Positions 22,367 to 54,725 of a DNA stretch of 58,989 nucleotides are shown here, piece by piece. The DNA is taken from IMG/VR virus record IMGVR_UViG_3300046777_001542, positions 1 through 58,989 of that record, one strand, 5' to 3'. The position numbers and the translations under genes are program-made. Numbering within the stretch: the first letter of the stretch is position 1; the number at the start of each line of letters is the position of its first letter. The stretch is from a virus. The notes under the pieces were generated by a model. The model was not told the origin of the DNA. It did no database searches and worked only from the letters and a program-made list of their open reading frames with translations.

Positions 22367-23953
22367 TTATTTGACTTTTGGACCATCGCCTTTGGCATTT
22401 CTACCCTCCCCATTTTTATCTGGGGCATTCTTGGCACGTTCTTGGTCTCTAGTTTTATTACCAGTAGATTTAGCTCTCTGGTCTGCCTCTTGCTGTGGCT
22501 TTAATTCTATGACTTCGTCTCCTCCGTCTAGCGGGATCATACCCTTTCTAATTCTAACTTCGTTAGGGGTAAGCACCTGCATGCGTAGGTAAATTTCATC
22601 AATTTGGCTCTGTGAGATTTCGTCAGTAAGACTCAACTCGTTAAATTTAATTACTAGCGCATCTGTCTTTTCTTCAATAATTGCATTAATCTTTTTCTCA
22701 AGTTTCATTTGCGCTGGGCGACAGACCTGCTCTTTAAATGTCTTGTCTGCATCACGAGCAACAGCTAAATTAACTCCTGGAGGGGTACCAATTTTATTAA
22801 TTGGAACACGATGTGCCATTAATATTTCGTCTCTATTTGTTTCACGATATACATTAAATGAAGACTCTTGGGCTCCCGCCTCAATTGGTTCCATCTTAAA
22901 TTCAGTCTTAGAATCTGGTGTATCTGCTGGCAGTGGGATATATAGGGATCTATGATTCTTGCCCTTTAATCCAACCTGGAAGAACTCAAGTAATTTTCTT
23001 TCTGACTCTGGTGATAACTTTGCACCCTTGACTGTAATAATATATCTTGGTACCGCCTTGTTTTCAAAGTAGTCAAGATTGTATCTTCCTGAAAATTCAT
23101 TTCCAGTTAATGCCATCTGTGCAGCAATGATGTCTGGTATGCCATAGTAGTTATTCATTGGGGTGTACTTCTTTAAATGAATAATTTCGTTTGGTCTATC
23201 TTCTGCACCTGCTATTGGGTTTGGAGTTTCTGTATCTCCAAAGTTTCTAAAGAACACCGCCTTGCCATATAGCAATTGCATAAAGCCATCACGCAGTCTA
23301 CGAACACGCATTGTTTTTGACGGGATATGACCAATGTAACCAATATTTCCAGCTGTGGTTCTTCCAATTTCAATATAGCCATTACCAGTTGCCTCTAGGT
23401 CTGTATACACCTTAATTAAAGTCTCTGTAAATGTGTCTTCATCGTTAGTAGAATCAAGCCAGTCTTGTAGATCTTGCTTTAGTTTATTTATCTTTCTTCT
23501 TGCTCTTTCAAGCTGTTTCTCATCTGTAATCTCATCAATGGCGTCATTAGTTTTTCTTGTCTCCATAAAATTGTAGCCAAGACCAACAATGTTTGCAACC
23601 TTAGCATTAACTGCTGCGTAGTTGTATGTTGATATCTCATATACCTGTGATAAGTATTCTAAATTATATTGTGGCTGAATTAAGTCAAACATAGCATATC
23701 CGCTAATTGCTTGAGCCATTAAGTTCTGTTGTGTAGCCGCCCCATCTTGACCAGTAAACGATTTAGAAAAATCTCTATTTATTTTTCTTTTAAAGTTAGT
23801 GCCAAGACCTCTTACCTTTTTTAAGTCATCAATGCCTATTGCAAATGGATCAAAATGCTCTTTTTCTTTTTTAAATGAAAACCAATCAGCAGTATTTGAT
23901 ATATTAATTGTTGAAGAGTTATCGTCGCCATCTTCAATAAATTGTGCTGTCAT
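22367..23953 (-). CDS. portal protein
   Basis: A 528-residue protein from ATG 23953, overlapping the upstream gene by 4 bases. Portal hallmarks include YLSQVYEISTYNYAAVNAKV (N-terminal helix), LEATGNGYIEIGR, IIHLKKYTPMNNYYGIPDII and LEFFQVGLKGKNHRSLYIPL, consistent with the PBSX/SPP1-like portal families. The C-terminus is basic and Gln/Lys-rich. It forms the dodecameric DNA gate of the head. It is followed by protease, capsid and neck genes. Unusually, no terminase precedes it: the upstream genes are a small protein and a LamG-like fibre. Confidence 0.92.
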   Translation of the reverse strand: MTAQFIEDGDDNSSTINISNTADWFSFKKEKEHFDPFAIGIDDLKKVRGLGTNFKRKINRDFSKSFTGQDGAATQQNLMAQAISGYAMFDLIQPQYNLEYLSQVYEISTYNYAAVNAKVANIVGLGYNFMETRKTNDAIDEITDEKQLERARRKINKLKQDLQDWLDSTNDEDTFTETLIKVYTDLEATGNGYIEIGRTTAGNIGYIGHIPSKTMRVRRLRDGFMQLLYGKAVFFRNFGDTETPNPIAGAEDRPNEIIHLKKYTPMNNYYGIPDIIAAQMALTGNEFSGRYNLDYFENKAVPRYIITVKGAKLSPESERKLLEFFQVGLKGKNHRSLYIPLPADTPDSKTEFKMEPIEAGAQESSFNVYRETNRDEILMAHRVPINKIGTPPGVNLAVARDADKTFKEQVCRPAQMKLEKKINAIIEEKTDALVIKFNELSLTDEISQSQIDEIYLRMQVLTPNEVRIRKGMIPLDGGDEVIELKPQQEADQRAKSTGNKTRDQERAKNAPDKNGEGRNAKGDGPKVK

Positions 23954-26167: not shown

Positions 26168-27148
26168 TTACCCCTGTTCTAGTTGTGCAACTCTTGTAGA
26201 TAATTCCTGTACGGCTTTTATAAGTGGAGCAATAAACTGCTCATATCTTAATGCTTGGCTTTCATCTTCTTTAAGAATCCATCCGCCAAAGTCTTCTACT
26301 CCAGATCCATCAACTGCTGCTTTAACTTCTTGAGCAATTAAACCATAATGTGTTCTTACACCAGCAACTGGTGTCTCAATCTGGTTTCCTTCTGGGTCAA
26401 ATGTTGTAACCGTGTCGCCAACAATATACTTATACTTTACTGGATTTAATGAGTTAATAAAGTTTAGTCCAAGATCAGATGCCTCTATGTTTGTTTTTAA
26501 ATTTAAATCAGAAGGAGTAATTAGTGATGCTGCATATACTGATCCCTGAAAGAACCCTCTCTTCCAGTTTTTTGCTGAAAATATTCCAGACAAAGAATCT
26601 ACTTCTTGGCCAATATCAAATAAGTTATTTGAAGATGGATACCAGTTTGAGTTAACTCCGTATGCAGAGGAAACTGCAAGATTTAAACTAATTCTATTAT
26701 CTAAAGGATCAATGTTTGCATTTTGTCCTGCTGGACCTTGTGGACCTGTAGCTCCAGTTGCTCCGTCTGCACCTCTTGGAATCGTAAAATTTAATTGTAC
26801 ATCAGAGCTTGTACCAGAGTTTGTTACAGATGCATTTGTTCCAGCTGCGCCAGTTGTTGTTGATTGAACTGTTACTGTTGCAGCAGCGTCACCTTTGTCG
26901 CCTTTTGGACCTGCTGGCCCCTGTATGCCCTGCTCACCTTGTGGGCCAGTTGCTCCAGTCAATCCCTGTGGACCTTCTGGGCCCTGGGCTCCTGTGGCTC
27001 CTGTGGGTCCTGCAGGCCCTACAGGGCCTGGGTGTGCGTCTAAGTACTGGTCAATGTCAAAAGCAAGCTGAGAGATATCCCTAGGTACGTCAGGGGTATC
27101 TGTATAGTCTGGATAACTAAAGCCTTTGTCATTTGGTACTGTTGCCAT
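26168..27148 (-). CDS. collagen-like tail fibre with C-terminal S74 chaperone domain
   Basis: A 326-residue protein. Residues about 40-88 and 128-142 are Gly-X-Y collagen repeats ([19 protein letters not shown], then [19 protein letters not shown]). Residues about 215-326 match the intramolecular chaperone of endosialidase-type fibres ([50 protein letters not shown]). That domain trimerises the fibre and then usually cuts itself off at a Ser near its N-terminus. All collagen prolines are in the X position of Gly-X-Y. The gene has TATAAT exactly 6 nt before its ATG and no ribosome binding site, so it may be leaderless. It directly follows the oxygenase array. Confidence 0.9.
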
Positions 27149-27169: not shown

Positions 27170-27778
27170 TTACCAAAGCCAAAACCCTGGTGCCATGTAT
27201 TTATTTCCAGACTTAAGCTCATTTGATCCATGAAGATATGGCTCTGAAGATGGGAATATTGCTATACTACCAGCTTGTGGCTTTATAACTACATTTTGAT
27301 TACTAAACGAAAGCTCTCCACCTTCATAATTATCGTTAAGATATGCAACTATAGAATATCTAAGCTTAGTATTCCCATCATACTGATCTGCATGTTGACC
27401 AAGTGTCTGGCCAGGGTTATATTTTTTAATTCCAAACTCTTTATCTAAGTTTACATCTCCATCAACATTATTGTATAGCTTATACTGTGTAGCACAAAAA
27501 TGCATACTAGACCTAATGCTGTTTATTATGTATAGCTCTCTTGCACTTGGTAGCGCTCCTGCTTTTTCATAATCAGCAGTTATATATTTTTCTAAACCAT
27601 AAATATCTTCTGGTCTATTGCTGGCCTTCCACAGTCTCCATTTTGATATAAGATTTGTATTTATTGATTCATCATCTTCTGTTTCTTCAATAAATTTTAC
27701 TAGCTTCTCTGGCTCAGATATTGCATTTGTAAAATAAAATATATTAGGAGCTAGTTCTTGAAAATTATACATTGCCAT
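27170..27778 (-). CDS. Fe(II)/2OG oxygenase, prolyl-4-hydroxylase type (array member 7)
   Basis: A 202-residue protein from ATG 27778 with AAGGA upstream. The double-stranded beta-helix core carries the iron triad HAD (His129, Asp131) and His183 (YLHG), and Lys193 in GNKYMAPGFW is the probable 2OG-carboxylate ligand. The family signature YLNDNYEGGELSF is intact, as is the PxxGSxxIFPS loop. Family knowledge: these enzymes couple 2OG decarboxylation to hydroxylation of proline or other residues. It overlaps the next oxygenase gene by 14 bp and is last in the array, just before the collagen-like fibre. The substrate is unknown; phage fibre proteins are an inference. Confidence 0.85.
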   Translation of the reverse strand: MAMYNFQELAPNIFYFTNAISEPEKLVKFIEETEDDESINTNLISKWRLWKASNRPEDIYGLEKYITADYEKAGALPSARELYIINSIRSSMHFCATQYKLYNNVDGDVNLDKEFGIKKYNPGQTLGQHADQYDGNTKLRYSIVAYLNDNYEGGELSFSNQNVVIKPQAGSIAIFPSSEPYLHGSNELKSGNKYMAPGFWLW

Positions 27779-28472
27779 GATTATCCTTATTCATCCAAAA
27801 CCCAGGTACCATATACTTATGACCACTCTTTACTAGATGGGCTGTGTGATTATAAGGTGAGGATGAAGGGAATATTAATACGCTTCCAGCCTCTGGCTTT
27901 AAATAGAAAGTTACTCTATCTGTGTCTTTGCTTAATTCTAAATCTTGATGTGGTTTATCGATAGAATCCATTATACCGTCTTTAATTGTAAATGATATTT
28001 CTCCGCCTTCATAGTCATCGTTTAAATACATTACTAAAGAATACTTTAGTCTTGTATCTCCTTCTTGTTGATCATAATGACCACCCATTGTGGTTCCAGC
28101 TGAATATCTGTTTATACCTATTGATGTCTGTAATAAAACATCGTCTTCTATTCCTTTTTCTTTTGCATAGTCTTTACATACTGACTGTAATCCATTTAGT
28201 ATTGTTTCTATAATTGTCTTAGCTTTTTCATATTGGTCTGGAGAGGCATTTTTTAATTCTTCTAAAGAGTCCAATGCTAGATTCTTTTTATTTCCATAAA
28301 CATACATTAATCCGCTGCAAGCAGACCACTCATCCCACTTTGGAACAACTTTAACTATTGGGTCGTTATCGTCATAATCCTCAGTAGAATTTATAAGGTC
28401 AATAAATTCTTTTGGATTTTCTATTACATTCTTGTAATAGTATACATTTTCTTCTAGTTTTTCTCTATTCAT
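27765..28472 (-). CDS. Fe(II)/2OG oxygenase, prolyl-4-hydroxylase type (array member 6)
   Basis: A 235-residue protein from ATG 28472 with AAGGAGAG upstream. The triad is HYD (His132, Asp134) and His209 (PYNHTAH), with Lys219 (GHKYMVPGFW) as the 2OG ligand. The signature YLNDDYEGGEISF is followed by an insert of about 23 residues (DGIMDSIDKPHQDLELS region) not present in its neighbours, which may shape a different substrate cleft. It is most like array members 5 and 7 at the C-terminus, suggesting tandem duplication. All catalytic residues are present. Confidence 0.85.
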   Translation of the reverse strand: MNREKLEENVYYYKNVIENPKEFIDLINSTEDYDDNDPIVKVVPKWDEWSACSGLMYVYGNKKNLALDSLEELKNASPDQYEKAKTIIETILNGLQSVCKDYAKEKGIEDDVLLQTSIGINRYSAGTTMGGHYDQQEGDTRLKYSLVMYLNDDYEGGEISFTIKDGIMDSIDKPHQDLELSKDTDRVTFYLKPEAGSVLIFPSSSPYNHTAHLVKSGHKYMVPGFWMNKDNHGNV

Positions 28473-28481
28473 TATCTCTCC

Positions 28482-29078
28482 TTAGTGAACTATAGTTCCA
28501 TTTTGCCAAAAATGAGGTATAAATATTTTTCTCCCAGACTTTAATGCTAATGAACCGTGATAGTATGGTTCTTTTGAAGGGAACAATATTATGCTACCTG
28601 CTTTTGGCTTTATTTTAACGTCTTGCTTTCCAAAATAAATTTCTCCGCCTTCATAGTCATCGTTTAAATAAACTACAAAAGAATATTCTAATGTATTTTG
28701 ATCTTCGTTCCAATCTGTATGCTGGCCCATCTCTTCATTTTCACGATACTTATTTAAAACAAAAATTTTGCCTATGTTGATTTTATCTTCAATGCTATAT
28801 ATTTCAGCATATTTTTCGGCACATGCATACATAGCATCTATAATTTCCATAATAATTTCTTCTGACTCTGGGTCTATTGGATTATTTTTATCTTCTTTTA
28901 CTCCAACAAACTTTCTTTCTCCGTAAACATATTTTTGTTCAGAGTTTGCTTCCCATGGCAGCCATGCTGATATAAATGAATTATCCACGCTGTCTATCTT
29001 AGAAAGCCATTCTTTTGGATTCTGAATAGCATCTTCAAAGTAAACTATTTTGTCGTATACTATTTCATGCTTCATCAT
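28482..29078 (-). CDS. Fe(II)/2OG oxygenase, prolyl-4-hydroxylase type (array member 5)
   Basis: A 198-residue protein from ATG 29078, overlapping the upstream gene by 14 bp. The triad is HTD (His120, Asp122) and His174 (PYYHGS), with Lys184 in the SGRKIFIPHFW segment as the probable 2OG-binding residue. The signature VYLNDDYEGGEIYF is present. The N-terminal half (SAWLPWEANSEQKYVYGERK) parallels the corresponding part of members 6 and 7. It is probably a soluble cytoplasmic enzyme, as no signal peptide is visible. Confidence 0.85.
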   Translation of the reverse strand: MMKHEIVYDKIVYFEDAIQNPKEWLSKIDSVDNSFISAWLPWEANSEQKYVYGERKFVGVKEDKNNPIDPESEEIIMEIIDAMYACAEKYAEIYSIEDKINIGKIFVLNKYRENEEMGQHTDWNEDQNTLEYSFVVYLNDDYEGGEIYFGKQDVKIKPKAGSIILFPSKEPYYHGSLALKSGRKIFIPHFWQNGTIVH

Positions 29079-29823
29079 TCATATATTCTTTTGCTGGTTT
29101 ACTTGAAACTCCTGGACCAGGCAAAAGCCTTTCTCCTCTTTCTCTCATTTTTGCCCACTCTTCTGCATCTTTTGCCTGCTGGACTCTTGCTTCAGAAATT
29201 TCTGTTTCCCATCTTGCTCTAGTTTCATCTGAGTACTCGACTTCTTCAAAATCCCAAAACGAACCAATTGTGTATCTAGTTCCTTTTTCTATAACAAGAA
29301 CTTCGTGTATATTATGGTGTCCTCCTTCAAAGGCTGCTAGCAGGCCTTTTCTAGGTTTAATTCTTATATCATGATCTCTAAAGTTTAATTCTCCACCTTC
29401 AAAATCATCATTTAAATAAAGGAAGGTTGCCATCTTACTTCTTTCAAAAGCATTGTAGTCTGGAGTATCCAGTGGGCTATTGTCTGAGTGGAATCCAGCA
29501 AATGCGCCTTCAATCCACTTTTGTGCATGGTAGCTAACCTTTCTAACTGGCTTGCCTCTGGTATCTGCTGTTGCTTCCTGTATTCCCTTTTCTAACTCTG
29601 CAAAAAAGTTTTCTGGTAGTCCAAATTCAAGCATGTCGCTATCTTCTGGGAGGTTTGATGAAAATGACTCATAAAAAGAAATGGGTCCCCAAGACAGTGT
29701 ACCTTTTTCTGTTGAGTGCTCCCAATACTTTAATATTGCGTCACAATGTTCTGGTGATATAAAATTTTCATATATAACTATATCATTTTTTAAAACTTTT
29801 TTACCATCAAGATTATACATCAT
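29065..29823 (-). CDS. Fe(II)/2OG oxygenase, prolyl-4-hydroxylase type (array member 4)
   Basis: A 252-residue protein from ATG 29823. The triad is HSD (His112, Asp114) and His173 (HHNIHEV), with Arg183 (GTRYTIGSFW) binding 2OG. The signature YLNDDFEGGELNF is present. It differs from its neighbours by a charged C-terminal extension of about 55 residues (EWAKMRERGERLLPGPG region), which may bind a partner. From memory, an N-terminal FISPEHCDAI segment is typical of P4H-domain proteins of aquatic phages. It overlaps both neighbours, consistent with one polycistronic message. Confidence 0.85.
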   Translation of the reverse strand: MMYNLDGKKVLKNDIVIYENFISPEHCDAILKYWEHSTEKGTLSWGPISFYESFSSNLPEDSDMLEFGLPENFFAELEKGIQEATADTRGKPVRKVSYHAQKWIEGAFAGFHSDNSPLDTPDYNAFERSKMATFLYLNDDFEGGELNFRDHDIRIKPRKGLLAAFEGGHHNIHEVLVIEKGTRYTIGSFWDFEEVEYSDETRARWETEISEARVQQAKDAEEWAKMRERGERLLPGPGVSSKPAKEYMNDEA

Positions 29824-30658
29824 TTAGTCTTCTCGCTTTCGATACTGTTTCTCTAGTTATCTGTTGATAAACTCCATTTGCTCTGTCCCGCTTCCATCTT
29901 TCTCTTTCCATCTGTGCCCATATTTCTTCTCCATAAAGTTGCTGATTTTTGATCCATTCTTCAGTACCCTCATTAAATCTGAGCATATTATTTCTTATAA
30001 AGTATTTTGGCGAACCAATAATTTTTCTAACTCCGTGATGATATAGCTCATCCCCTTCTGTTAAAAATCCAGGATCTCCCGCTGGGAAAACAATTACGTC
30101 TCCAGCTTTTGGCTTGTAATAAAATAATTTATCGTTTATATAAAAATCAATTCCGCCACCTTCGTAATCATCATTAAGATACATTGTTACAGTTACAGAA
30201 AAATTATATCCTCTAGCATCTTTTTTTTCTACTTGGTAGTCTGTATGGTAATGCATTGCAAGGTCTAATGCTACTTCAGTCTCTGGGTTATACTTACATA
30301 TTGAAGGCCCCATTTTTTGCCATTTATTTTTTGTTTTACCGTCAACTGTATCTACAAATGTATCAAATGAATATTCAACATTATGTTTTTCAAAATAATG
30401 ATCAACTACTGTAAAAAATACTCTTTCTATTTCTTCTAGGGCTTCTTTTTCTTTTATAACTCTTGGAGTATCTTCGGCATCACGAATAAAGTTGTCTGCC
30501 TCTAAACCAAATGTATACCAATCCTCCCAAGGAAAGATCATTGATCCTTCAGGATTTTTTTCTGACTCTACTATTACATTTAGAAAAGAGTCTAGGTCTT
30601 TAAATATATTGCTATATACAAAAACTTTTGGATAAACTTCTCTATATTCTATTTCCAT
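29813..30658 (-). CDS. Fe(II)/2OG oxygenase, prolyl-4-hydroxylase type (array member 3)
   Basis: A 281-residue protein, the longest of the array, from ATG 30658 (TAATG overlap with the upstream gene). The triad is HTD (His138, Asp140) and His208 (LYHHGV), with Lys218 (SPKYFIRNN) as 2OG ligand. The signature MYLNDDYEGGGIDFY is present. It has its own C-terminal tail of about 60 residues, rich in Trp/Arg/Glu (WAQMERERWKRDRANG). The different loops and tails across the array suggest separate substrates rather than simple gene dosage. Confidence 0.85.
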   Translation of the reverse strand: MEIEYREVYPKVFVYSNIFKDLDSFLNVIVESEKNPEGSMIFPWEDWYTFGLEADNFIRDAEDTPRVIKEKEALEEIERVFFTVVDHYFEKHNVEYSFDTFVDTVDGKTKNKWQKMGPSICKYNPETEVALDLAMHYHTDYQVEKKDARGYNFSVTVTMYLNDDYEGGGIDFYINDKLFYYKPKAGDVIVFPAGDPGFLTEGDELYHHGVRKIIGSPKYFIRNNMLRFNEGTEEWIKNQQLYGEEIWAQMERERWKRDRANGVYQQITRETVSKARRLNDV

Positions 30659-31347
30659 TATGGCTGTCTCTCTCCAGTATGCTTTAATATATTCCAGAAG
30701 AATGGTGAGGTGTATCTGTTTCCAGAAATAATTGGCCTTACTCCATGAACATAATGTCTGTCTCCTGGAAAAAAGTATGCGGATCCAGCATTTGGCTTAA
30801 ATTCTATTCCTTGTATTGGAAAGAATAATTCTCCGCCTTCATAGTCATCATTAAAATAAAATATTGATGCAATATCATAATGAGGGAAATCATTAGGTGT
30901 TCCAGCATCTGGACCCTCGTGAAGTTCTTTATCTGCATGAGGATCTTGTCTAGTTCCAACTGGCCATCTTACAATAGCTGGGCCCGTTGCTTGTACATCA
31001 ACATCAAAAAATTTATCAACTTCTACTTTAAGTCTTGTAATAAGACCTTCTACTATATGAACAATTGATGGATCATGAGATATTTCCATTGAGCGTCTTG
31101 TACATACTCTATCAGCCCATACGCCAGCATCATATATAACTGTACCGTTTTCATTAAAATGTGACTCTGTTATGTCCCATGTCTTGTTGTTGAATGCAAA
31201 CTCAGTTAATCTTTGTTTTTCTTCTTCAGTTAAGAAGTTTTTTAGCTCAACAATATTGTCTACAGAATCACCAAAAAAACCAGAAGGCGTAATTGATGTA
31301 AGCTCTTTATAATTATGCTCTTTGTTTGTGTTTACTTGTTTTTGCAT
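30658..31347 (-). CDS. Fe(II)/2OG oxygenase, prolyl-4-hydroxylase type (array member 2)
   Basis: A 229-residue protein. ATG 31347 is chosen because AGGAGAAG lies directly upstream and the preceding gene ends 8 nt before it; a TTG at 31380 would add 11 residues but overlap that gene. The triad is HAD (His137, Asp139) and His201 (YVHGV), with Arg211 (GNRYTSPFFW) binding 2OG. The signature FYFNDDYEGGELFF is present. The motif RQDPHADKELHEGPD gives a longer loop after the HxD than in its neighbours. Confidence 0.85.
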   Translation of the reverse strand: MQKQVNTNKEHNYKELTSITPSGFFGDSVDNIVELKNFLTEEEKQRLTEFAFNNKTWDITESHFNENGTVIYDAGVWADRVCTRRSMEISHDPSIVHIVEGLITRLKVEVDKFFDVDVQATGPAIVRWPVGTRQDPHADKELHEGPDAGTPNDFPHYDIASIFYFNDDYEGGELFFPIQGIEFKPNAGSAYFFPGDRHYVHGVRPIISGNRYTSPFFWNILKHTGERQP

Positions 31348-31355
31348 TTCTTCTC

Positions 31356-32105
31356 CTATTGGTATTTTCTTTTTGACCAAAACTTCTTCTTATAGACTCC
31401 ACCATCTGGTGATCTAAATGTATCTGCTGTCTCTTTGTGCTTTTGTAAAATTTCTTCTGCTGTCCTAAAAACAAGATCCATTTCCCAATCATCTCTTTTA
31501 AAAGGAATTATTTGCATGTATGGTGTGCCTGCTGGCACTACGCCTGTAAACCCTTTTTGTAAGAAAAACGGAATAAGTCCTGAGTTTGTTACCTTATCAC
31601 TATCTATTATACCAGCCACCGTTAAAAATGGTAAATCAAATCTATTAACTGGTGACAGATAAATTGCACTATATCCTTCTGGAAGGACTGGTGCCCAGTT
31701 TGCATACCAATGAAAATGGTCATCATCATAACCTGCTGGGGTTACAAACCCTTCCATCTTTGCTCGTTCTCCAACAAAATCTTCAAAGCCAACATCTGTC
31801 TTTACTTTTGTTCTTCCACGCTTTTCATAAAATTCAATATCGCATGGGGTAAGTAATGCGTAACCAGTTGTAAATATATCAAGAAGTGCTGGGCAGGATT
31901 TGTAGGACATAACCTTTGTTATGCCGTCTGGATTAATATATGGGTTTCCATTTGGATCTTTTATGTAAATACTTGCATCTTGCCACCACGTTGCAAGTGA
32001 TTTGCTCATTGGTGATGGCGCATGAGTTCCATCTTTTTTGTTATATATCTTATTAGAATGAAATGTTATTTTATTTGTCACTGCAGGCCACTGGCTTTCC
32101 GTCAT
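31356..32105 (-). CDS. unknown protein of oxygenase cluster (paralogue of the gene upstream)
   Basis: A 249-residue protein from ATG 32105, overlapping the upstream gene by 35 bp. It lacks the HxD...H triad. Segments such as YANWAPVLPEGYSAIYLSPV and VVPAGTPYMQIIPFKRDDWE look like a beta-barrel, possibly cupin-like, core. The upstream 240-residue protein has a matching layout (IKAGTPVISIMPISLQEL), so the two are distant paralogues. I recall an uncharacterised family (possibly annotated DUF6065) with this look, but cannot confirm the number. Placement inside the oxygenase array suggests a shared substrate or pathway. Confidence 0.6.
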   Translation of the reverse strand: MTESQWPAVTNKITFHSNKIYNKKDGTHAPSPMSKSLATWWQDASIYIKDPNGNPYINPDGITKVMSYKSCPALLDIFTTGYALLTPCDIEFYEKRGRTKVKTDVGFEDFVGERAKMEGFVTPAGYDDDHFHWYANWAPVLPEGYSAIYLSPVNRFDLPFLTVAGIIDSDKVTNSGLIPFFLQKGFTGVVPAGTPYMQIIPFKRDDWEMDLVFRTAEEILQKHKETADTFRSPDGGVYKKKFWSKRKYQ

Positions 32106-32793
32106 TAACCTTTAACCTTAAAGCTTTTACTTCATGGTCACCTATTTTATTTCCATAATGATCTACACCATCCCTATAGAAGTTTGTCCATTTACCAGCT
32201 TTATTTATTTCATAAACAATATCTCCATATTTTTCATCTGGAAAAAACCCTGGTGGTAGTTCAAATAAATCACGCATTACTGCCTCTGAATTATTTAGTT
32301 CTTGTAAAGATATTGGCATTATAGATATCACTGGGGTACCAGCTTTGATTGTAATTACAGTATCTGGTCTAGTGACTCTCCATGCTACTGGGAATTCCCC
32401 TTTAAAAAATGAAGTTGATATTAAACTAGTAAATGGGTGTGCCCCATCTATAAATTGATTAGGTACTGGCATTCCCATTATACTAAGATTTTCTTCTGTT
32501 CTAAATAATAGGCCAGTATTAAAACTTATTGTTGCATTTCCTCTTGTATTATGTGCATACTTTTCACCTGAAAGAATTTTTACATGGTCTGACTGTGAGT
32601 CAGAAATTCCGTCCCATATAAAACTAATATCCTCTGGGAAAGATATCCCCCAACCAAGACCATTTGAAAGACTTACTGGAAAACATTTATATGCATGTGC
32701 ATTAAAGGTTTCATCCATCCAGGATCTTTTTATTCCTAGAGGTTCAAGTTTTCCATAGTTTGGTCTTGTTTGGTAGACATCAAATGTGTGCAT
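32071..32793 (-). CDS. unknown protein of oxygenase cluster (paralogue pair, first copy)
   Basis: A 240-residue protein from ATG 32793, sharing a base with the stop of the first P4H-type gene. It contains SNGLGWGISFPEDISFIWDG, then GLLFRTEENLSIMGMPVPN and TVITIKAGTPVISIMPIS. The last segment matches the AGTP..QIIPF segment of the next gene. No catalytic metal triad was recognised. It is probably soluble. The pair lies between array members 1 and 2, so co-expression with the hydroxylases is likely. Function is unknown. Confidence 0.6.
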   Translation of the reverse strand: MHTFDVYQTRPNYGKLEPLGIKRSWMDETFNAHAYKCFPVSLSNGLGWGISFPEDISFIWDGISDSQSDHVKILSGEKYAHNTRGNATISFNTGLLFRTEENLSIMGMPVPNQFIDGAHPFTSLISTSFFKGEFPVAWRVTRPDTVITIKAGTPVISIMPISLQELNNSEAVMRDLFELPPGFFPDEKYGDIVYEINKAGKWTNFYRDGVDHYGNKIGDHEVKALRLKVNDGKPVACSDK

Positions 32794-33470
32794 TAGTACT
32801 CGTCATCTTTTAATGAAAGATTTGTGGCATGCTGTCTATAAAATTCTGGCGAATGTGCGGCATCATTATAATCAGTCATTGTTACTAAGGAATATTTTGT
32901 TCCAGTTAAAACTGGCATAGCTCTATGTGAGAATAAATATGTTGATGGGAAGATAAATAAATCACCAGCATTTGGCTTTACCTCAATGCCAATTTTTCCA
33001 AAGCTTAGGCCTCCGCCCTCATAATCATCATTTAAATATCCAACCATTGAGACTGTAGCAATATACGACCAGCCATGATCAGCATGCTCAGCAAAATGTT
33101 GTCCTGGACCATACTTAATAAAGTTCATGGCTTCCCAATATTTCATATCAATATTGTAAAACTTTGAATAGTCGTCCAAAGCAACTTTTTGAGCATCATA
33201 AAGATCTTGCCAGACGCTATCAAATTCAGTCATGTATTTGTCTTTGCCTGGGTAGTCCATCTTTTTTAATTTAAAATCGTAGCAATCACGATACTCTGGA
33301 ATTTTTTCCCTGTATCCTACAGTTGCTTCTTTCCAGTTATAAAGTCCATTACTTTCTTTTAGAGTATTTTCAACTCTTTCAATAGCATTAATTTCTGGCT
33401 TTAAAACATCACGATATAGCCATAATCCAGGAAATAGCTCTTCTTTTGAAGAGTATCCAATATTTGACAT
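32793..33470 (-). CDS. Fe(II)/2OG oxygenase, prolyl-4-hydroxylase type (array member 1)
   Basis: A 225-residue protein from ATG 33470 with a purine-rich AGAAAGAAG upstream. The triad is HAD (His129, Asp131) and His182 (LFSHRA), with Lys192 (GTKYSLVTMTD) as 2OG ligand. The signature GYLNDDYEGGGLSF and KPNAGDLFIFPST are intact. It is first in transcription order of the nine-gene oxygenase cluster. The N-terminal half (YREKIPEYRDCYDFKLKKMD) differs from the rest. The call to the P4H superfamily is secure; substrate is unknown. Confidence 0.87.
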   Translation of the reverse strand: MSNIGYSSKEELFPGLWLYRDVLKPEINAIERVENTLKESNGLYNWKEATVGYREKIPEYRDCYDFKLKKMDYPGKDKYMTEFDSVWQDLYDAQKVALDDYSKFYNIDMKYWEAMNFIKYGPGQHFAEHADHGWSYIATVSMVGYLNDDYEGGGLSFGKIGIEVKPNAGDLFIFPSTYLFSHRAMPVLTGTKYSLVTMTDYNDAAHSPEFYRQHATNLSLKDDEY

Positions 33471-33515: not shown

Positions 33516-33908
33516 TTAGTTCCAAGCACTTCCAATTTCTGGGAGTGCCTCAGATGTTATTGGGTGAACTGAGATTCCGTCATTTGTAGCCTTTAAAAAT
33601 GCTTGTATTGTTCCTTGTCCTACATACATAACTCTTTTAATAAAAAAGATTTTATTGTCAGAAATAAAAGCAAATCTATGCTGTCCCTCTACTATATGTG
33701 CTGGTTCGCTGTCATCATGTGTAAATGATGTGCCATCCCATGTTGAGCCAATTCTTGCCTCTTCATTATCTGTTATATCAATAACACAAGTTGTATTTTC
33801 AAAGCCAGCCTTTTTTCTATCGTAAGAAGGTGCTTCTGGATCTAATGTAACTGTTCCTATAACAATATTATTTGAAACGAAAGCATATGAATTTTCTGCA
33901 ATTGCCAT
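33516..33908 (-). CDS. hypothetical protein between fibre and oxygenase genes
   Basis: A 130-residue beta-rich protein from ATG 33908 with AGGAG upstream. It begins MAIAENSYAFVSNNIVIGTV and contains IGSTWDGTSFTHDDSEPA, a phrase often seen in short fibre or virion-associated proteins of aquatic phages. It lies alone between the FPP-repeat fibre and the oxygenase array, behind its own -10 element and a terminator hairpin, so it heads the transcription unit that includes the array. No family is assigned. Confidence 0.55.
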   Translation of the reverse strand: MAIAENSYAFVSNNIVIGTVTLDPEAPSYDRKKAGFENTTCVIDITDNEEARIGSTWDGTSFTHDDSEPAHIVEGQHRFAFISDNKIFFIKRVMYVGQGTIQAFLKATNDGISVHPITSEALPEIGSAWN

Positions 33909-33934: not shown

Positions 33935-33968
33935 ATTTAAGTGGGGCTGTTGCCAGCCCCACTTAAAT
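33935..33968 (-). terminator. terminator hairpin after FPP-repeat fibre gene
   Basis: A perfect 14-bp inverted repeat (arms 33935-33948 and 33955-33968, 6-nt loop) lies 5 nt after the fibre stop. The GC core AGTGGGGCT is flanked by AT pairs that take the place of a U-tract. Confidence 0.7.
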
Positions 33969-33973
33969 TTATT

Positions 33974-34924
33974 TTAGTATCTGAATCCGAACCGTGGTGG
34001 TGCGAAGTATGGTGGGAAGTACGGTGGTGTGAATGCGAAGTATGGGTATCCGCTAAAGTACGGTGGGAAGTACGGTGGTGTGAATGCGAAGTACGGTGGG
34101 AAGAATGGTGGGAAGTGTGGTGGGAAGAATGGTGGGAAATACGGTGGGAAGAATGGTGGGAAGAATGGTGGGAAGTGTGGTGGGAAGAATGGTGGGAAAT
34201 ACGGTGGGAAGAATGGTGGGAAGAATGGTGGGAAGTGTGGTGGGAAGAATGGTGGGAAATACGGTGGGAAGAATGGTGGGAAGAATGGTGGGAAGTGAGG
34301 CGGGAAGAATGGTGGGAAGTACGGCGGCGTAAATGTAGTAACGCTATTAGTACTAGCACCAAGTGATGTTCCGTTTGCGTTTAATGCATAAATTGTATAA
34401 CTCTGAGTTGTATTACCTGTTTCTGGAATATCTTTTGGAGATACAGAGTTTGTGTAAGAAGGTCCATCTGTAGAAACTACTGTGTAGCTTGATACAGCTT
34501 TTCCTCCATCTGATGCAGGTGCATCCCAGACAACTCTATCTGAGTTGTTTGATGGGCTTGATGCGCTTGCATTTCTTGGAGAAGATGGAACTGTTGTAGC
34601 TGTTGCGCTAGCAGTTGCTGGTAAAGAATTTCCAGCAGCGTTGCTTGCAATAACTGTAAATGTATAAGCTGTACCAGACGCTAAACCTTGAAATAAAAAT
34701 GTTTTATTTGCTGTTGTTTGAGTAGTCGTGGTTGGACTTGTTGTGATTGTGTATAAGGTTGCTGGTGGAGATGCTGCTGGTAGATCCCAAGATAGGTTAA
34801 CTGCACCATCATTATAGGCACGGTTTGTACCTACATCTGTTGCGGCAAGGTTTATTACTGCATTTGGCTCTAGGAAGTTGTCCTGCGCTGAAGACTTAAT
34901 TCCTTTTCTTTTACTTGTTGCCAT
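33974..34924 (-). CDS. FN3-type fibre protein ending in aromatic-Pro-Pro repeats
   Basis: A 316-residue protein from ATG 34924 with AGGGGAT upstream. Two FN3-like domains span about 20-110 and 110-195 ([38 protein letters not shown]). From about 196 to the end the protein is almost only Phe, Pro, Tyr and His in units such as FFPPYFPP and FFPPHFPP, then [13 protein letters not shown], ending PPRFGFRY. The repeat is coded by 60-bp DNA units that are nearly identical. FN3 domains in phages decorate the virion and bind surfaces. The aromatic diproline tract is not a fold I recognise; it could be an adhesive or a polyproline-like stalk. Confidence 0.8.
34081..34325 (-). repeat. 60-bp tandem repeat coding FPP units
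   Basis: About four tandem units of exactly 60 bp; the lines starting at 34141 and 34201 are identical over 60 bases and the one at 34261 differs at a few bases. Each unit codes 20 residues in the pattern [20 protein letters not shown]. Near-perfect DNA identity implies recent expansion or ongoing recombination. Confidence 0.9.
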
Positions 34925-34942: not shown

Positions 34943-37132
34943 TTACGCAGTCAAATCGCCCATGAGAACCCAAGTATTAGCTGCTCTCTTAAATAATGTT
35001 GCTGATGACCAACGTGCTCTTAATGTTAAGCCTGGTGTTGCGTTTACTGTTGCTCCAGAACCAGCAATTGTTACTGCTCCTGTGTTTGTTCTTAATATAT
35101 CAATAGAGGTTCCTACTGGGTATGTGATGCCATTTGTGCCGTCTTCAGTAACTGTAATTGTAACTGCTGATCCGCCTGTGTGGTTTACCTCTAGCATTTG
35201 ATCTCTGTAGTTTGCATCTGTTATATTGAATGCTGAAGTCTTTTCAACAATTGATGTCTGTGAAGGAACTCCTTGCTTTGTCTGTGTTCCGTCTGTAAAG
35301 ACTACTCCTGCTGCTGTTAAGTTATTCACGGCAAGGTCATCTAATGATCCCTGTGTAAAATCAACTGTTGTTGCTGGCTCTGAAGTTACATCTTTAAAGA
35401 GCTTCCACTTAGAATCAGATACATCCCTTACAATACCTGCATGGTATCCTGTCTGACCATCATTATAAGCAACTACAAGACCAAGGTCTACTGAGTTACC
35501 TGAATTTTGGTGAGCAAGCTGTACTAAGTTATCTTCAATTGTAATAGATGTCGCTGATGCATTAAATGTTGTACCATTTACAGTAAGGTTACCCTGAACT
35601 GTTAATGCTCCGTCTAATGTTGTAGACTGTGCATCTGTTGTTACAAGCTTTGATGTGTCAGCAATTCCATGAACAGATGTTGTGGCATTATTATGTGTAC
35701 CAACTTCTGCTGTTGCTGTTCCAGCTGCATCATAATTTGATGCTAATCCATCTGCGTAGTTTTCTGATGCCACTGCTGCTGCATCAATTGCCTCTTGCTT
35801 TGCTGTAGCAACATTTGCTGTAGTTGCAAGAAGTGCTGTATTTGCAATTCCATGGACACCTGTTGTGTCAAGATTATGTGTATTTACTGCTGCATCTGCA
35901 TAATCTTTTGTTGCTAATGCTGCTGTATCTGCAATTCCATGGACTGTTGTTGTAGCAGATTCGTGTGATGTAAAATCTCCAGCATCTGCCTTTAAGTCTA
36001 ATGCGCTTTGTGTGGCTGTTGAGATTGGCTTATTTGCATCTGATGTATTGTCTGCATTTGCTAATCCAACCATATCTTTTGTTATTCCAGATACTGTGCC
36101 AGTAAAAGTTGGGCTTTCAATTGGAGCTTTATCATCAATTTGTGTCTGTATACCAGATGTAACTCCATTTAAATAACCAATTTCATTGCTAGCAACATCA
36201 CCTATTGATGTTGTAGAAGGCAAGCCTACTGTGCCAGTAAATATTGGTGATTCAATTGGAGCTTTATCATCTAATTGTACTTGTATTGATGATGTTACTC
36301 CATTTAAGTATCCAATTTCAGTTGATCCTACGTCGCCTATTGTTGTATTTGATGGTAGCGCTACTGATGTAGTAAATACTGGTGAGTCTATAGGGGCTTT
36401 ATCGTCTAGCTGAACTTGTATATTTGATGTTACGCCATTTACATATCCAATTTCAGTCTCTGATACGCTTCCAATTGTTGTTGTTGAAGGAAGAATAACT
36501 CCTCCAGTAAATGTTGGTGAATTTAATGGAGCCTTAAGATCTAAATCTTCTAATGCTCCCTGTACAACAGAAGCATCAGCTTTTGCTGCCAATGATGTTG
36601 CAACTGTAGATGCAAAGTTTTCATCATCATTAAGTGCTGCTGAAAGCTCTTCTAGTGTATTTAGGACTGATGGTGCTGCACCAACAATCTGAGCAAATGC
36701 TTGATCTGTGTATGACTCTGCATACATTTTTGTTGCAAGAACTGATGTATCTGCTGATACTGTAATTGTATTAGATGCATCGTTGTATGCTTTTGTAATA
36801 CCTGTTCCTGCTGTTAATGCTGTATTTACAGCATCCTGTGAAAGTTCTGTAATATCTAATTGAGCTGCTGGTACCTTACCGTTGCTATCAAGTGAAGCTA
36901 CACCATTAGGCTGTCCAAGTAGGTTATCTTCAAGATAAGCACCTACTCTATTCTCTAAATCAGATAATGGTTCGTTTGCATAAGGAAGTGCATTCCATGC
37001 TGTGCTTCCAGTTCCAAACTTAAAATAATTTGTGTCGGACTCAAGTCCAACTTCTCCTGCTGCTAGAATTGGGTTAACTAGAGCCCATTGAGCTTCTGTA
37101 CCTCTTCTTACTTGAATTCTTACTGTTGACAT
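34943..37132 (-). CDS. long tail fibre with repeated beta modules
   Basis: A 729-residue protein. I use ATG 37132; a GTG three codons upstream lies inside the ribosome binding site. The N-terminal ~60 residues (RIQVRRGTEAQWALVNPIL, GEVGLESDTNYFKFG) are the virion-anchoring module seen in many phage fibres. Residues about 215-390 hold three to four repeats of about 46 residues built on DDKAPIESPxFTGT...IGYLNGVTS. Later HGIADTA-type repeats continue the shaft, and the C-terminal ~120 residues look like a head domain. It is probably trimeric and receptor-facing. Confidence 0.8.
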   Translation of the reverse strand: MSTVRIQVRRGTEAQWALVNPILAAGEVGLESDTNYFKFGTGSTAWNALPYANEPLSDLENRVGAYLEDNLLGQPNGVASLDSNGKVPAAQLDITELSQDAVNTALTAGTGITKAYNDASNTITVSADTSVLATKMYAESYTDQAFAQIVGAAPSVLNTLEELSAALNDDENFASTVATSLAAKADASVVQGALEDLDLKAPLNSPTFTGGVILPSTTTIGSVSETEIGYVNGVTSNIQVQLDDKAPIDSPVFTTSVALPSNTTIGDVGSTEIGYLNGVTSSIQVQLDDKAPIESPIFTGTVGLPSTTSIGDVASNEIGYLNGVTSGIQTQIDDKAPIESPTFTGTVSGITKDMVGLANADNTSDANKPISTATQSALDLKADAGDFTSHESATTTVHGIADTAALATKDYADAAVNTHNLDTTGVHGIANTALLATTANVATAKQEAIDAAAVASENYADGLASNYDAAGTATAEVGTHNNATTSVHGIADTSKLVTTDAQSTTLDGALTVQGNLTVNGTTFNASATSITIEDNLVQLAHQNSGNSVDLGLVVAYNDGQTGYHAGIVRDVSDSKWKLFKDVTSEPATTVDFTQGSLDDLAVNNLTAAGVVFTDGTQTKQGVPSQTSIVEKTSAFNITDANYRDQMLEVNHTGGSAVTITVTEDGTNGITYPVGTSIDILRTNTGAVTIAGSGATVNATPGLTLRARWSSATLFKRAANTWVLMGDLTA

Positions 37133-37164
37133 ATTTGCCACCCCTAATTTAGACTTATTTTGTA

Positions 37165-40083: not shown

Positions 40084-40308
40084 CTACCACTTTTTTAGTG
40101 GACATTCCGCATATTTTATTTTTGTTTTAGCTTTCATTACACAGCCACACTCTTTGCATTGTGTTGTAAGACTTATGAATCTTGGACACTCTTTGCATAT
40201 AGACAGTTTTGCAGCCGCTTCTTCATCAGAGACATATTCGGTTCTAGGATTTAATATATCCCATGGCCTTGTGTCTCCAAGCTTTTCTTTGTAGCTTTCC
40301 CATGTCAT
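40084..40308 (-). CDS. small zinc-ribbon-like protein
   Basis: A 74-residue protein from ATG 40308, sharing one base with the stop of the Hint fibre gene. Six cysteines in the pattern CKECP...CKECGC...CP are arranged as a treble-clef or ribbon (SICKECPRFISLTTQCKECG, then AECPLKKW). From memory, similar small Cys proteins occur beside fibre genes in aquatic phages. It may be a folding or assembly helper. No catalytic role is implied. Confidence 0.7.
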   Translation of the reverse strand: MTWESYKEKLGDTRPWDILNPRTEYVSDEEAAAKLSICKECPRFISLTTQCKECGCVMKAKTKIKYAECPLKKW

Positions 40309-52127: not shown

Positions 52128-52691
52128 CTATATGTCTCTTTTTAATGTTCCTTTTTTAAAAACAAAGCCAGTTATAAAGTACCTTGTTCCAGATGTTACA
52201 TGCGTTACTGCATGAGTATAGTCTTTGTATCCAGAGTGAACTAGTAGCCTGCCAGCTTTTGGTTTAAGTTTAATTCCTTTATTTATATAAATAGTTTCTC
52301 CGCCATCAAAATCATCATTAAAGTATAGGATGTATCCTTTAGTAACATTAACGCTTGACCCATCGCCATAGTCGTGATTGTCTGCATGAATTCCAAGTGC
52401 ATAATCTCTTCCGTTGTTAGTAGATACACGAAGTCTATTTACAAAAGCATTTATATTGCATTCTTCTTCATCATTATCTATCAAATCTTGTATACGGCTA
52501 TTTATCGCCAGCCTAAGTTCTCTAGAAGATGTGCATTCTTTAATATTGTTTTCCCAATCTCCTTCTGCACCAAACCATCCGTCTTTTTTAAGGCAGTCAG
52601 TCATCATGATTTCAATTTCGTTTGGGGTTAGAAAGTTATCAATATAATAGATACCATCATCGACCTTAGTTATGACATAATTATTTTCCAT
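52128..52691 (-). CDS. Fe(II)/2OG oxygenase, prolyl-4-hydroxylase type
   Basis: A 187-residue protein from ATG 52691. The triad is HAD (His102, Asp104) and His160 (DYTHAV), with Arg170 (GTRYFITGFV) binding 2OG. The signature YFNDDFDGGETIY is present. It belongs to the same superfamily as the seven-gene array 20 kb away but is closer to the 166-residue enzyme at 53,637 (both end RYxITGF). TAAAAT lies exactly 6 nt before the ATG, preceded by TGC, with no ribosome binding site: a likely leaderless message. Confidence 0.85.
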   Translation of the reverse strand: MENNYVITKVDDGIYYIDNFLTPNEIEIMMTDCLKKDGWFGAEGDWENNIKECTSSRELRLAINSRIQDLIDNDEEECNINAFVNRLRVSTNNGRDYALGIHADNHDYGDGSSVNVTKGYILYFNDDFDGGETIYINKGIKLKPKAGRLLVHSGYKDYTHAVTHVTSGTRYFITGFVFKKGTLKRDI

Positions 52692-52795: not shown

Positions 52796-52957
52796 ATGAG
52801 TCCAAGACATTTTGCGAAGCGCATGTATGGTCCTTACTTTTTAAGTGATAACCATCCAGACCAACATCATGCAAAGATGGAGGCTAAAATAGAAGAGGGT
52901 GCCAAAAAGTTTTGGCATATACTCTTAAAGCCTTTCTCTAAGTTCTCCAAATCCTAA
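52796..52957 (+). CDS. 53-residue protein, probably leaderless
   Basis: From ATG 52796. TATAAT with a GTG extension ends exactly 6 nt before the ATG, so the transcript would begin at the start codon. The sequence is MSPRHFAKRMYGPYFLSDNH with a basic/aromatic C-terminus (KKFWHILLKPFSKFSKS) that could be an amphipathic helix. The 3' end overlaps the converging cupin gene by 33 bp. A longer frame to 52,721 has no start signal. Function is unknown. Confidence 0.5.
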   Translation: MSPRHFAKRMYGPYFLSDNHPDQHHAKMEAKIEEGAKKFWHILLKPFSKFSKS

Positions 52958-53479
52958 AGATACTCCAAAGCGGGGGGAAGAAGCAATAACATTATGCATT
53001 CTCCCATTAGGACAATATAGAACATCTCCTGGTCCAATTACTTTATCAAATTCAATTTCACTATTAGTCTTATCATATATCTGCCATCTAGAATATCCCT
53101 GAAGCTGCCAGAATATAACATTTTCATAATCTATATGTGGTCCACCATATGCTGATGGATCTGTAGTTAAAGACATATATATCTGATGATCACTTCCTAC
53201 TTCTTCAGCCAATGGAGATTCATGGAGTACCTCTAATAAATTCTCTAAGGCTTCTCTAACGGCTTTGATCCTATGTGCCTGTCTTATCTTATACCCGCCC
53301 AATTTAAATCGCTTCTGACCATGTTTTCTGCCGTTTTTCACATCATCATCTAAAAGAATAAATACTTCATCCCATGTGACTTCTGGCATATTTAGGTCAG
53401 TACGATGATCTATATGTCTGTTTTGTATGTTTTGTAGTAGTTTGATATCATTTTTAAAATCATGCATAATTTTAGTCAA
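52925..53479 (-). CDS. JmjC/cupin-type Fe(II)/2OG oxygenase-like protein
   Basis: About 184 residues from TTG 53479 (ATG 53467 is the alternative). It has the jelly-roll layout with HID (His115, Asp117) and His162 (CPNGRMHNV), plus the conserved tail SSPRFGVSLGFGEL. VIFWQLQGYSRWQIY is typical of JmjC/cupin_4-like enzymes such as ribosomal-protein hydroxylases. It is clearly paralogous to the 190-residue gene at 54,134. The substrate is unknown. It lies just downstream of the tRNA gene, possibly on the same transcript. Confidence 0.75.
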   Translation of the reverse strand: MTKIMHDFKNDIKLLQNIQNRHIDHRTDLNMPEVTWDEVFILLDDDVKNGRKHGQKRFKLGGYKIRQAHRIKAVREALENLLEVLHESPLAEEVGSDHQIYMSLTTDPSAYGGPHIDYENVIFWQLQGYSRWQIYDKTNSEIEFDKVIGPGDVLYCPNGRMHNVIASSPRFGVSLGFGELRERL

Positions 53480-53566: not shown

Positions 53567-53640
53567 GTAAATACCTGCAGCAATAAGCCACATATATGTA
53601 CGAGTATAGTTACAATTCCAACCCACAGTATTAACTTCAT
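53557..53640 (-). CDS. 27-residue membrane peptide overlapping tRNA 5' end
   Basis: ATG 53640 overlaps the stop of the oxygenase gene (ATGA), and the frame reads MKLILWVGIVTILVHICGLL to a TAG at 53557, inside the first 10 bases of the tRNA gene. It is one hydrophobic helix. Coupled translation is plausible, but a peptide this short can arise by chance. Confidence 0.35.
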   Translation of the reverse strand: MKLILWVGIVTILVHICGLLLQVFTGV

Positions 53641-54137
53641 GGAGTAAACTCCAGAGAATCATCTCCATATGCAAATCCAGTGATATAGTATCTACATCCT
53701 GAAGTAACTACTTGAACCTTATGTGGGATATCTCCTCTATGAATGAGCATTGATCCCATCTTTGGTTTAAATGCTAGATTAATATCTGGATACTCAATGT
53801 TCCCGCCTTCAAAATCACTATTTAGATAAAGTACAATACCCCATTTAATTCCTACTTGATTTTCATTTAATCCATATCCATCATCACGATGTAGATCCAT
53901 GCCCATATTGGTATCCCATCTTTGTACTAAGAATAATCCCGCCATTTTTTCTAAATTTTTAAACATAGGATAGATTCTGCTACGCAATTTACGAAACAGT
54001 GGAGCAAAGTCATTGTGCTCAATATTTGTAGTAAGACCATATACAGGATTTTCTTCTACAACACGCATAAATCTATCAATCTCTTCTTGAGATAAAAAAT
54101 TTTCGTATTCGTAGATGCCATCTGCTAGTAGATTCAT
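53637..54137 (-). CDS. Fe(II)/2OG oxygenase, prolyl-4-hydroxylase type
   Basis: A 166-residue protein, the smallest of the family here, from ATG 54137 (ATGA overlap with the upstream cupin gene). The triad is HRD (His83, Asp85) and His139 (DIPHKV), with Arg149 (GCRYYITGFAY). The signature YLNSDFEGGNIEY and KPKMGSMLIH are intact. It is coupled to a JmjC-type enzyme, suggesting the two act on the same target one after another. Confidence 0.83.
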   Translation of the reverse strand: MNLLADGIYEYENFLSQEEIDRFMRVVEENPVYGLTTNIEHNDFAPLFRKLRSRIYPMFKNLEKMAGLFLVQRWDTNMGMDLHRDDGYGLNENQVGIKWGIVLYLNSDFEGGNIEYPDINLAFKPKMGSMLIHRGDIPHKVQVVTSGCRYYITGFAYGDDSLEFTP

Positions 54138-54706: not shown

Positions 54707-54712
54707 GTACCT

Positions 54713-54721
54713 AGTATAGCA
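54713..54721 (-). promoter_or_regulatory. extended -10 of leaderless oxygenase promoter
   Basis: The minus strand reads TGCTATACT, then six bases and the ATG at 54706. The -35 position falls on the left half of the parS palindrome (TTGTTT at 18-bp spacing). Confidence 0.6.
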
Positions 54722-54725
54722 TTTG

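What the first reader, a model, noticed from the sequence alone, without database searches (positions are those of the whole stretch)
27170..33470. Seven prolyl-4-hydroxylase-type oxygenases in one late phage cluster
Seven genes each keep the HxD...H iron triad and a Lys/Arg for 2OG, yet differ in inserts and C-terminal tails, which suggests separate substrates. They sit between a fibre gene with extreme proline repeats and a collagen-like fibre. Inference: a virion-protein (or host-surface) hydroxylation system. Two more P4H-type and two JmjC-type enzymes lie at 52-55 kb, giving eleven in one phage window.
Basis: partly seen in the sequence, partly recalled or inferred. Interest (0 to 1): 0.82.

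Follow-up and report, generated by a model that had tools for sequence, protein, structure and literature searches.

The report
Phage fibre-linked protein hydroxylase gene array
A group of abundant, mainly freshwater phages carries a row of five to eight different, intact prolyl-4-hydroxylase-type enzymes inside its tail-fibre/portal gene block, next to a fibre-like protein made of dozens of Pro-Pro-x-Phe repeats, which suggests (but does not prove) that the phage chemically modifies its own attachment proteins.

Summary
Seven genes at 27170-33470 pass Pfam's cut-off for 2OG-FeII_Oxy_3 and keep HxD...H plus Lys/Arg at H+10. Two further genes in the interval are DUF6065-type, not oxygenases. 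Two P4H-type and two JmjC-type genes at 52-54.7 kb make eleven.

It is not a one-off. All 43 relatives selected by portal, with at least 7 kb upstream, carry 4-8 such genes there, in the order fibre - (PPxF)n protein - P7 - DUF6065 x2 - P6 - P5 - P4 - variable tail - (collagen) - LamG - portal. P4 and P5 are single clades; triads of P2-P7 are invariant.

PPxF-repeat proteins mark P4H-rich phages outside this lineage: 14/20 contigs against 2/30 random and 1/10 habitat-matched. One unrelated phage has sulfotransferase and Asp/Asn-hydroxylase genes there. Proximity within contigs was not significant.

Best reading: a late protein-modification locus for fibre/adhesin proteins, the PPxF repeat being the leading substrate. 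The collagen-like fibre is a poor classical P4H substrate (no Y-position Pro). A triad-less paralogue under purifying selection implies a non-catalytic role as well.

No substrate is shown. Cyanophages and HTVC008M carry 7-10 PF13640 genes without PPxF proteins, so multi-2OG phages are known; the ordered fibre-linked array is the new part.

The parts
27170..27778 (-). P1: P4H-type 2OG-Fe(II) oxygenase, HAD...H...K; variable end of array; related to the triad-less paralogue in relatives
   Evidence: PF13640 4e-13
27765..28472 (-). P2: P4H-type oxygenase with an insert of about 25 aa before the distal His
   Evidence: PF13640 1e-11; triad invariant in 19/19
28482..29078 (-). P3: P4H-type oxygenase
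   Evidence: PF13640 2e-12; triad 6/6
29065..29823 (-). P4: P4H-type oxygenase with C-terminal helical tail; core array member
   Evidence: PF13640 2.5e-9; H2 and Arg 41/41; one clade
29813..30658 (-). P5: P4H-type oxygenase, longest, with C-terminal tail; core array member
   Evidence: PF13640 7e-7; triad 50/50; one clade
30658..31380 (-). P6: P4H-type oxygenase; core array member (start codon uncertain, TTG listed)
   Evidence: PF13640 2e-7; triad 21/21
31356..32105 (-). D65b: DUF6065 relative (phrog_7084), not an oxygenase
   Evidence: phrog_7084 7e-30; alignment A2
32071..32793 (-). D65a: DUF6065, predicted dUTPase-like fold
   Evidence: PF19541 1.5e-32; AlphaFold pLDDT 85, dUTPase Z 11.7
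32793..33470 (-). P7: P4H-type oxygenase, first of the array; core member
   Evidence: PF13640 8e-13; triad 40/40; nearest PDB sequences LH3 and bacterial P4H
33516..33908 (-). o130: small protein of unknown function between the PPxF gene and P7
   Evidence: phrog_14370 8e-7
33935..33968 (.). 15-bp perfect hairpin behind the PPxF gene, followed on the minus strand by TATAAT; likely boundary of the transcription unit
   Evidence: GC-rich hairpin at the same place in 28 of 51 relatives
33974..34924 (-). PPxF-repeat protein: two fn3 matches plus 24 PP[FHY]F units; leading candidate substrate
   Evidence: fn3 3e-12; repeat counts
34943..37141 (-). Fibre with Mtd_N-type N-terminus (Mtd)
   Evidence: PF18454 1e-12
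26168..27148 (-). Collagen-like fibre with S74 chaperone; prolines only in the X position
   Evidence: PF01391, PF13884
24351..26165 (-). LamG/ConA-type lectin-domain protein, probable adhesin
   Evidence: PF13385 3e-10
40308..43112 (-). Second PPxF-repeat protein (o934) with HINT/intein-like C-terminal domain
22367..23953 (-). Portal protein (lineage marker)
   Evidence: phrog_12 4e-57; about 56-58% to Stanwilliamsviridae
52128..52691 (-). Q1: P4H-type oxygenase outside the array
   Evidence: PF13640 1e-8
52925..53479 (-). J1: short JmjC_2-type oxygenase
   Evidence: PF08007 2e-11
53637..54137 (-). Q2: P4H-type oxygenase, below Pfam cut-off
   Evidence: phrog_61 4e-15
54134..54742 (-). J2: short JmjC_2-type oxygenase
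   Evidence: PF08007 1.5e-9; nearest PDB sequence is the L16 arginine hydroxylase, E 0.005

Best explanation
The array is a late-operon protein-modification locus. Several separately conserved P4H-family 2OG/Fe(II) oxygenases are made together with the fibre/adhesin proteins and hydroxylate them before or during assembly. The most likely substrate is the PPxF-repeat protein encoded directly upstream of the array (prolines, possibly the aromatic residues); the LamG or other adhesins are further candidates. Core enzymes (P7, P6, P5, P4) would do a conserved job and the variable P1/P2/P3 end a strain-specific one. Shown: family, intact catalytic residues, conserved order, purifying selection, co-occurrence with PPxF proteins. 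Inferred: late co-expression from position and overlapping ORFs, protein as substrate, PPxF as target, effect on adhesion or stability.
For: Placement between fibre and portal in 43/43 portal-selected relatives with at least 7 kb upstream. Overlapping or near-abutting ORFs from P7 to P1. Triads of P2-P7 invariant apart from one truncated P4; paralogue labels need 11 changes on the tree against 146 in shuffles. dN/dS at moderate divergence about 0.04-0.08 for the active genes tested, P2, P4, P5, P6 and P7. PPxF proteins mark P4H-rich phages outside the lineage: 15/38 loci against 0/120 random and 7/119 collagen loci; 14/20 contigs without the window-type portal against 2/30 random and 1/10 habitat-matched. 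Phages with no detectable portal kinship share the module of Mtd-type fibre, PPxF protein, P4H and DUF6065 but little else. One such phage adds a sulfotransferase and an Asp/Asn hydroxylase at that place. In 74 proteins, 1,506 of 1,540 PP dipeptides are followed by xF although the spacing switches between 4 and 6 residues. Nearest solved sequences are protein hydroxylases. The Streptomyces relatives examined lack both features.
Against: No substrate or expression data. Within contigs the PPxF gene is not significantly closer to P4H genes than random positions (combined p 0.70 outside the lineage). Cyanophages and HTVC008M carry 7-10 PF13640 genes without PPxF proteins, so the enzymes have other uses at least there. 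Hydroxyproline was not found in PBCV-1 virions although that virus has a P4H (PMC7019647). P4H-family sequence does not fix the substrate. Six of 20 PPxF contigs show no PF13640 gene, though they may be fragments.
Confidence: 0.52

Rival explanations
1. Metabolic or regulatory auxiliary genes: the oxygenases draw down 2-oxoglutarate or alter host nitrogen or energy metabolism, as proposed for cyanophages.
For: Proposed in the literature for multi-2OG cyanophages (PMC3037559) and repeated for SUP05 and lake phages. PHROGs file the family under auxiliary metabolic genes.
Against: Several deeply different paralogues kept separately with fixed order are not needed to consume 2OG; they sit in the structural block and not with the metabolic genes; the module travels with PPxF proteins.
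Confidence: 0.13
2. Modification of host proteins for take-over, for example ribosome or elongation-factor hydroxylation; this may hold for the 52-55 kb P4H/JmjC set in particular.
For: The nearest solved sequence to J2 is the ribosomal protein L16 arginine hydroxylase (E 0.005). A bacterial P4H in complex with EF-Tu is solved and the fold is shared (4iw3).
Against: The main array lies in the fibre/portal block and follows the PPxF protein across lineages; host targets would not require this.
Confidence: 0.15
3. The proteins are partly structural or chaperone-like: P4H-fold proteins bind fibre polypeptides and help folding or decorate the virion, catalysis being optional.
For: A triad-less P1 paralogue under purifying selection (dN/dS 0.065, maximum 0.10) keeps the fold (Z 14.2 to algal P4H) and lies just before LamG in arrays that lack the collagen fibre (31/50 against 1/66).
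Against: All other members keep every catalytic residue. The collagen/triad-less pattern may be a single event inherited by one clade.
Confidence: 0.12
4. Nucleic-acid oxidation or repair (AlkB- or TET-like).
For: Proposed for cyanophage copies (cited in PMC3037559). Weak sub-threshold Tet_JBP match for P1.
Against: PDB sequence matches of P3 and P7 are to protein prolyl or lysyl hydroxylases; location in the late structural block; no AlkB-family hit in Pfam above cut-off.
Confidence: 0.04

Closest known systems
Multi-copy 2OG-Fe(II) oxygenases of Kyanoviridae cyanophages and Pelagibacter phage HTVC008M
   Same: Same family; 7-10 PF13640 matches per genome, some beside tail-fibre or other virion genes; HTVC008M has a run of four annotated 2OG oxygenases within its structural region
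   Different: No PPxF protein; D65a finds no match in the annotated phage collection; no row of seven P4H-type genes was seen in the regions examined
HTVC023P-type pelagiphage 2OG-Fe(II) set (PMC9599517)
   Same: Eight non-orthologous members, often near one another
   Different: Described as not adjacent and linked to ferrochelatases
PBCV-1 prolyl 4-hydroxylase
   Same: Virus-encoded P4H acting on proline-containing peptides
   Different: The review describes one small P4H; virion hydroxyproline was not found (PMC7019647)
Stanwilliamsviridae (Streptomyces phages such as Muntaha, Enygma)
   Same: Portal about 56-58% identical, matching head and tail gene order
   Different: No PF13640 gene and no PPxF repeat in the two genomes searched; endolysin-type and hypothetical genes stand in the place of the array

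Membership tests
P4H-type 2OG-Fe(II) oxygenases (PF13640) | Profile match above the curated cut-off | tested here: met
   Seven of seven array genes and Q1; Q2 only below cut-off
P4H-type 2OG-Fe(II) oxygenases (PF13640) | HxD...H metal triad and Lys/Arg at H+10 | tested here: met
   All seven; invariant across relatives for P2-P7 apart from one truncated P4; the triad-less P1 paralogue of relatives fails
P4H-type 2OG-Fe(II) oxygenases (PF13640) | Double-stranded beta-helix fold | tested here: inconclusive
   Modelled only for the triad-less paralogue, which has it; active members not modelled
Prolyl 4-hydroxylase (enzyme activity) | 4-hydroxylation of peptidyl proline | not testable with these tools
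   Needs biochemistry
Collagen prolyl 4-hydroxylase | Y-position prolines in the neighbouring collagen-like protein | tested here: not met
   0 of 22 triplets in the window; 54 of 938 in relatives
DUF6065 (PF19541) | Profile match above cut-off | tested here: met
   D65a 113 bits against 26.6; D65b has no Pfam hit, only phrog_7084
dUTPase | dUTPase fold | tested here: met
   D65a model, Z 11.7, rmsd 2.6, 116 aligned
dUTPase | Catalytic motifs I-V | not tested
   No motif-by-motif comparison was run, so it is not filed as a dUTPase
JmjC ribosomal oxygenase (J1, J2) | JmjC_2 domain | tested here: met
   PF08007 2e-11 and 1.5e-9
JmjC ribosomal oxygenase (J1, J2) | Dimerisation and winged-helix domains | tested here: not met
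   Proteins of 184 and 202 aa leave no room for them after the JmjC match; the domain description is from PMC4295552
Stanwilliamsviridae | Homologous portal and head/tail gene order | tested here: met
   Portal about 56-58%, gene order; demarcation criteria not tested

The most novel reading that the evidence does not exclude
A transferable phage adhesin-decoration locus: a set of dedicated hydroxylases, with sulfotransferase and Asp/Asn hydroxylase in one other lineage, post-translationally edits a PPxF-repeat fibre, some copies of which end in a HINT self-processing domain, to give hydroxyproline-rich, extensin-like virion surfaces.
Probability: 0.25. Interest if true: 0.85.

Novelty: new variant of a known kind. 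Interest (0 to 1): 0.58.

Why it matters
Multi-copy 2OG oxygenases are among the most frequent unexplained genes of aquatic phages and have mostly been called auxiliary metabolic genes. An ordered array with intact catalytic residues, fixed to the fibre block and to PPxF proteins in several lineages, turns 'what do they do?' into a concrete test: look for +16 Da on the fibre proteins. If positive, phage adhesins would carry an enzyme-written chemical layer besides their sequence.

Tried and rejected
Collagen fibre as classical P4H substrate: rejected for the window, no Y-position Pro; collagen loci are P4H-linked in only 7/119. Proximity of PPxF to P4H inside contigs: not significant, so only presence/absence association is claimed. 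A count of F at position 4 was circular (the regex required it) and is not used; one search replaces it. dN/dS medians of 0.2-0.47 include saturated pairs, limited to dS 0.05-0.8, replaces them. The P4 'broken' list came from choosing the wrong His and was corrected. Cellular DUF6065 neighbours: the genome scan gave a single contig labelled Chitinophagaceae that carries the same phage module. D65b relatives in Hafunaviridae lie near RNR and virion genes; no oxygenase is annotated there. Nucleotide megablast against annotated phages: no match. Literature searches found no paper on fibre hydroxylation by phage 2OG enzymes; the library is open-access only.
Full report
WHAT IS THERE. The window is a 59-kb fragment of an uncultured phage. 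Its portal is about 56-58% identical to that of Stanwilliamsviridae of Streptomyces, and the head and tail genes follow the same order. Reading along the minus strand, the fibre block runs: Mtd_N-type fibre, fn3+PPxF-repeat protein, o130, P7, D65a, D65b, P6, P5, P4, P3, P2, P1, collagen+S74 fibre, LamG protein, o132, portal, protease, capsid. Seven genes are P4H-type oxygenases above Pfam's cut-off, each with HxD, a distal His and Lys/Arg at H+10. They are 21-40% identical. Neighbouring ORFs overlap or nearly abut from P7 to P1, as expected of one co-translated unit; this is inference, no expression data exist. The two interposed genes are not oxygenases: DUF6065 and a phrog_7084 relative. D65a is predicted with a dUTPase-like fold (Z 11.7 over 116 residues); what that fold does here is unknown.

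CONSERVATION. Two searches of IMG/VR, one by P7 and one by the portal, gave 80 loci each. Among portal-selected loci, which are not biased towards P4H, all 43 with at least 7 kb upstream of the portal carry 4-8 P4H-type genes there. Gene order is kept; the variation lies in P1/P2/P3, in DUF6065 copy number and in the collagen gene. In a tree of 231 representatives P4 and P5 are each one clade, and all labels together need 11 changes against 146 in shuffles (FastTree, many open branches). Triads of P2-P7 are invariant, apart from one truncated P4. At dS 0.05-0.8, median dN/dS is 0.04-0.08 for the active genes P2, P4, P5, P6 and P7 in the loci tested. These are therefore separate, old, maintained enzymes.

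A TRIAD-LESS MEMBER. In about 30 relatives the last gene before LamG is a P1 paralogue of about 180-190 aa that has lost both metal ligands of the first motif and the distal His but keeps the 2OG-anchoring Arg/Lys. It is under purifying selection (median dN/dS 0.065, maximum 0.10) and is predicted to keep the fold (pLDDT 90, Z 14.2 to algal P4H). It occurs in arrays without the collagen gene (31 of 50) and almost never with it (1 of 66), although shared ancestry could explain that. The filter used to recognise it was loose; one search uses a stricter one. A non-catalytic role, such as subunit, substrate binder or chaperone, is the plain inference.

THE PPxF PROTEINS. The window protein has 24 PP[FHY]F units in eight different DNA spellings, so the peptide and not only the DNA repeat is maintained. 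In 74 unique proteins directly upstream of arrays, 1,506 of 1,540 Pro-Pro pairs are followed by x-Phe, with spacing 4 in 49 proteins and 6 in 25. Some copies, including the second PPxF protein of the window (40308-43112), carry a HINT/intein-like C-terminal domain (Pfam matches weak, below cut-off; the region also matches a protein annotated as virion structural in Erwinia jumbo phages). Others have PASTA-like domains (also below cut-off).

A scan for PPxF DNA gave 120 loci, of which 78 belong to the window's lineage. Of 38 others, 15 carry P4H-type genes, against 0 of 120 random loci and 7 of 119 collagen-type loci (p 4e-11 and 2e-6). By contig, 14 of 20 PPxF contigs of at least 15 kb without the window-type portal have PF13640 genes, against 2 of 30 random contigs (p 4e-6) and 1 of 10 contigs from the same metagenomes (p 0.005). 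Cautions: loci are not independent, some portal-less fragments may still be kin, the control contigs differ in length, and the habitat-matched control was picked by hand from shared IMG dataset numbers. Inside contigs the PPxF gene is not nearer to P4H genes than a random position, because P4H genes are dense; adjacency alone proves nothing. Two other phage types share the module but little else with the window's lineage: one has fibre - PPxF - P4H - P7-like - DUF6065 - further P4H and TauD; the other has PPxF - DUF6065 x2 - sulfotransferase - Asp/Asn hydroxylase - P4H. The second is essentially one species.

WHAT SPEAKS AGAINST A SIMPLE STORY. The window's collagen-like fibre has prolines only in the X position (10 X, 0 Y of 22), so it is not a classical collagen-P4H substrate; relatives have 54 Y prolines in 938 triplets. 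Three cyanophages and HTVC008M have 7-10 PF13640 matches but no PPxF protein, and two Streptomyces relatives have neither. Earlier authors explained such genes by 2OG metabolism or DNA repair (PMC3037559); pelagiphages have eight non-orthologous but non-adjacent ones (PMC9599517). PBCV-1 has a P4H, yet hydroxyproline was not found in its virions (PMC7019647).

MECHANISM. Most likely (0.52): the enzymes are made with the fibre proteins and hydroxylate them, PPxF first in line. Family, active-site integrity, order and association are shown; timing, protein substrate, residue and purpose are inferred. The 52-55 kb P4H/JmjC set may differ: J2's nearest solved sequence is the ribosomal L16 arginine hydroxylase (E 0.005), though these proteins are too short to be complete ribosomal oxygenases (domain description from PMC4295552).

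VERDICT. The single enzymes are of a well-known phage kind; the ordered, fibre-linked array with DUF6065 and PPxF proteins is a new variant.

Noticed in passing
window 40308-43112, C-terminal ~165 aa; L079:8564-9895; L072:2550-3959: HINT/intein-like domain directly behind PPxF-type repeats (Pfam matches weak, below cut-off), possibly self-processing adhesins; the region also matches a virion structural protein of Erwinia jumbo phages.
   Followed up: partly
window 31356-32793: DUF6065 (D65a) is predicted with a dUTPase-like fold; D65b relatives occur in haloarchaeal Hafunaviridae.
   Followed up: partly
window 33935-33968; relatives: Perfect 15-bp hairpin behind the PPxF gene; a GC-rich hairpin of different sequence sits at the same place in 28 of 51 relatives, with TATAAT just behind it in the window.
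   Followed up: partly
window 52128-54742: P4H - JmjC - P4H - JmjC alternation with a tRNA-Ile (TAT) inside.
   Followed up: partly
L044:15984-16529 and about 30 relatives: Triad-less P4H-fold paralogue under purifying selection, nearly exclusive with the collagen gene.
   Followed up: yes
L188:3716-9900 (L558-L566): PPxF protein followed by DUF6065-type x2, sulfotransferase, Asp/Asn hydroxylase and P4H genes in a phage with no detected portal kinship.
   Followed up: partly
window 27001-33000: The array has lower GC (0.35) than its flanks (0.37-0.40).
   Followed up: no
L541 (genome contigs): A 5.3-kb contig labelled Chitinophagaceae MAG holds the phage module; probably a mis-binned phage fragment.
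   Followed up: no
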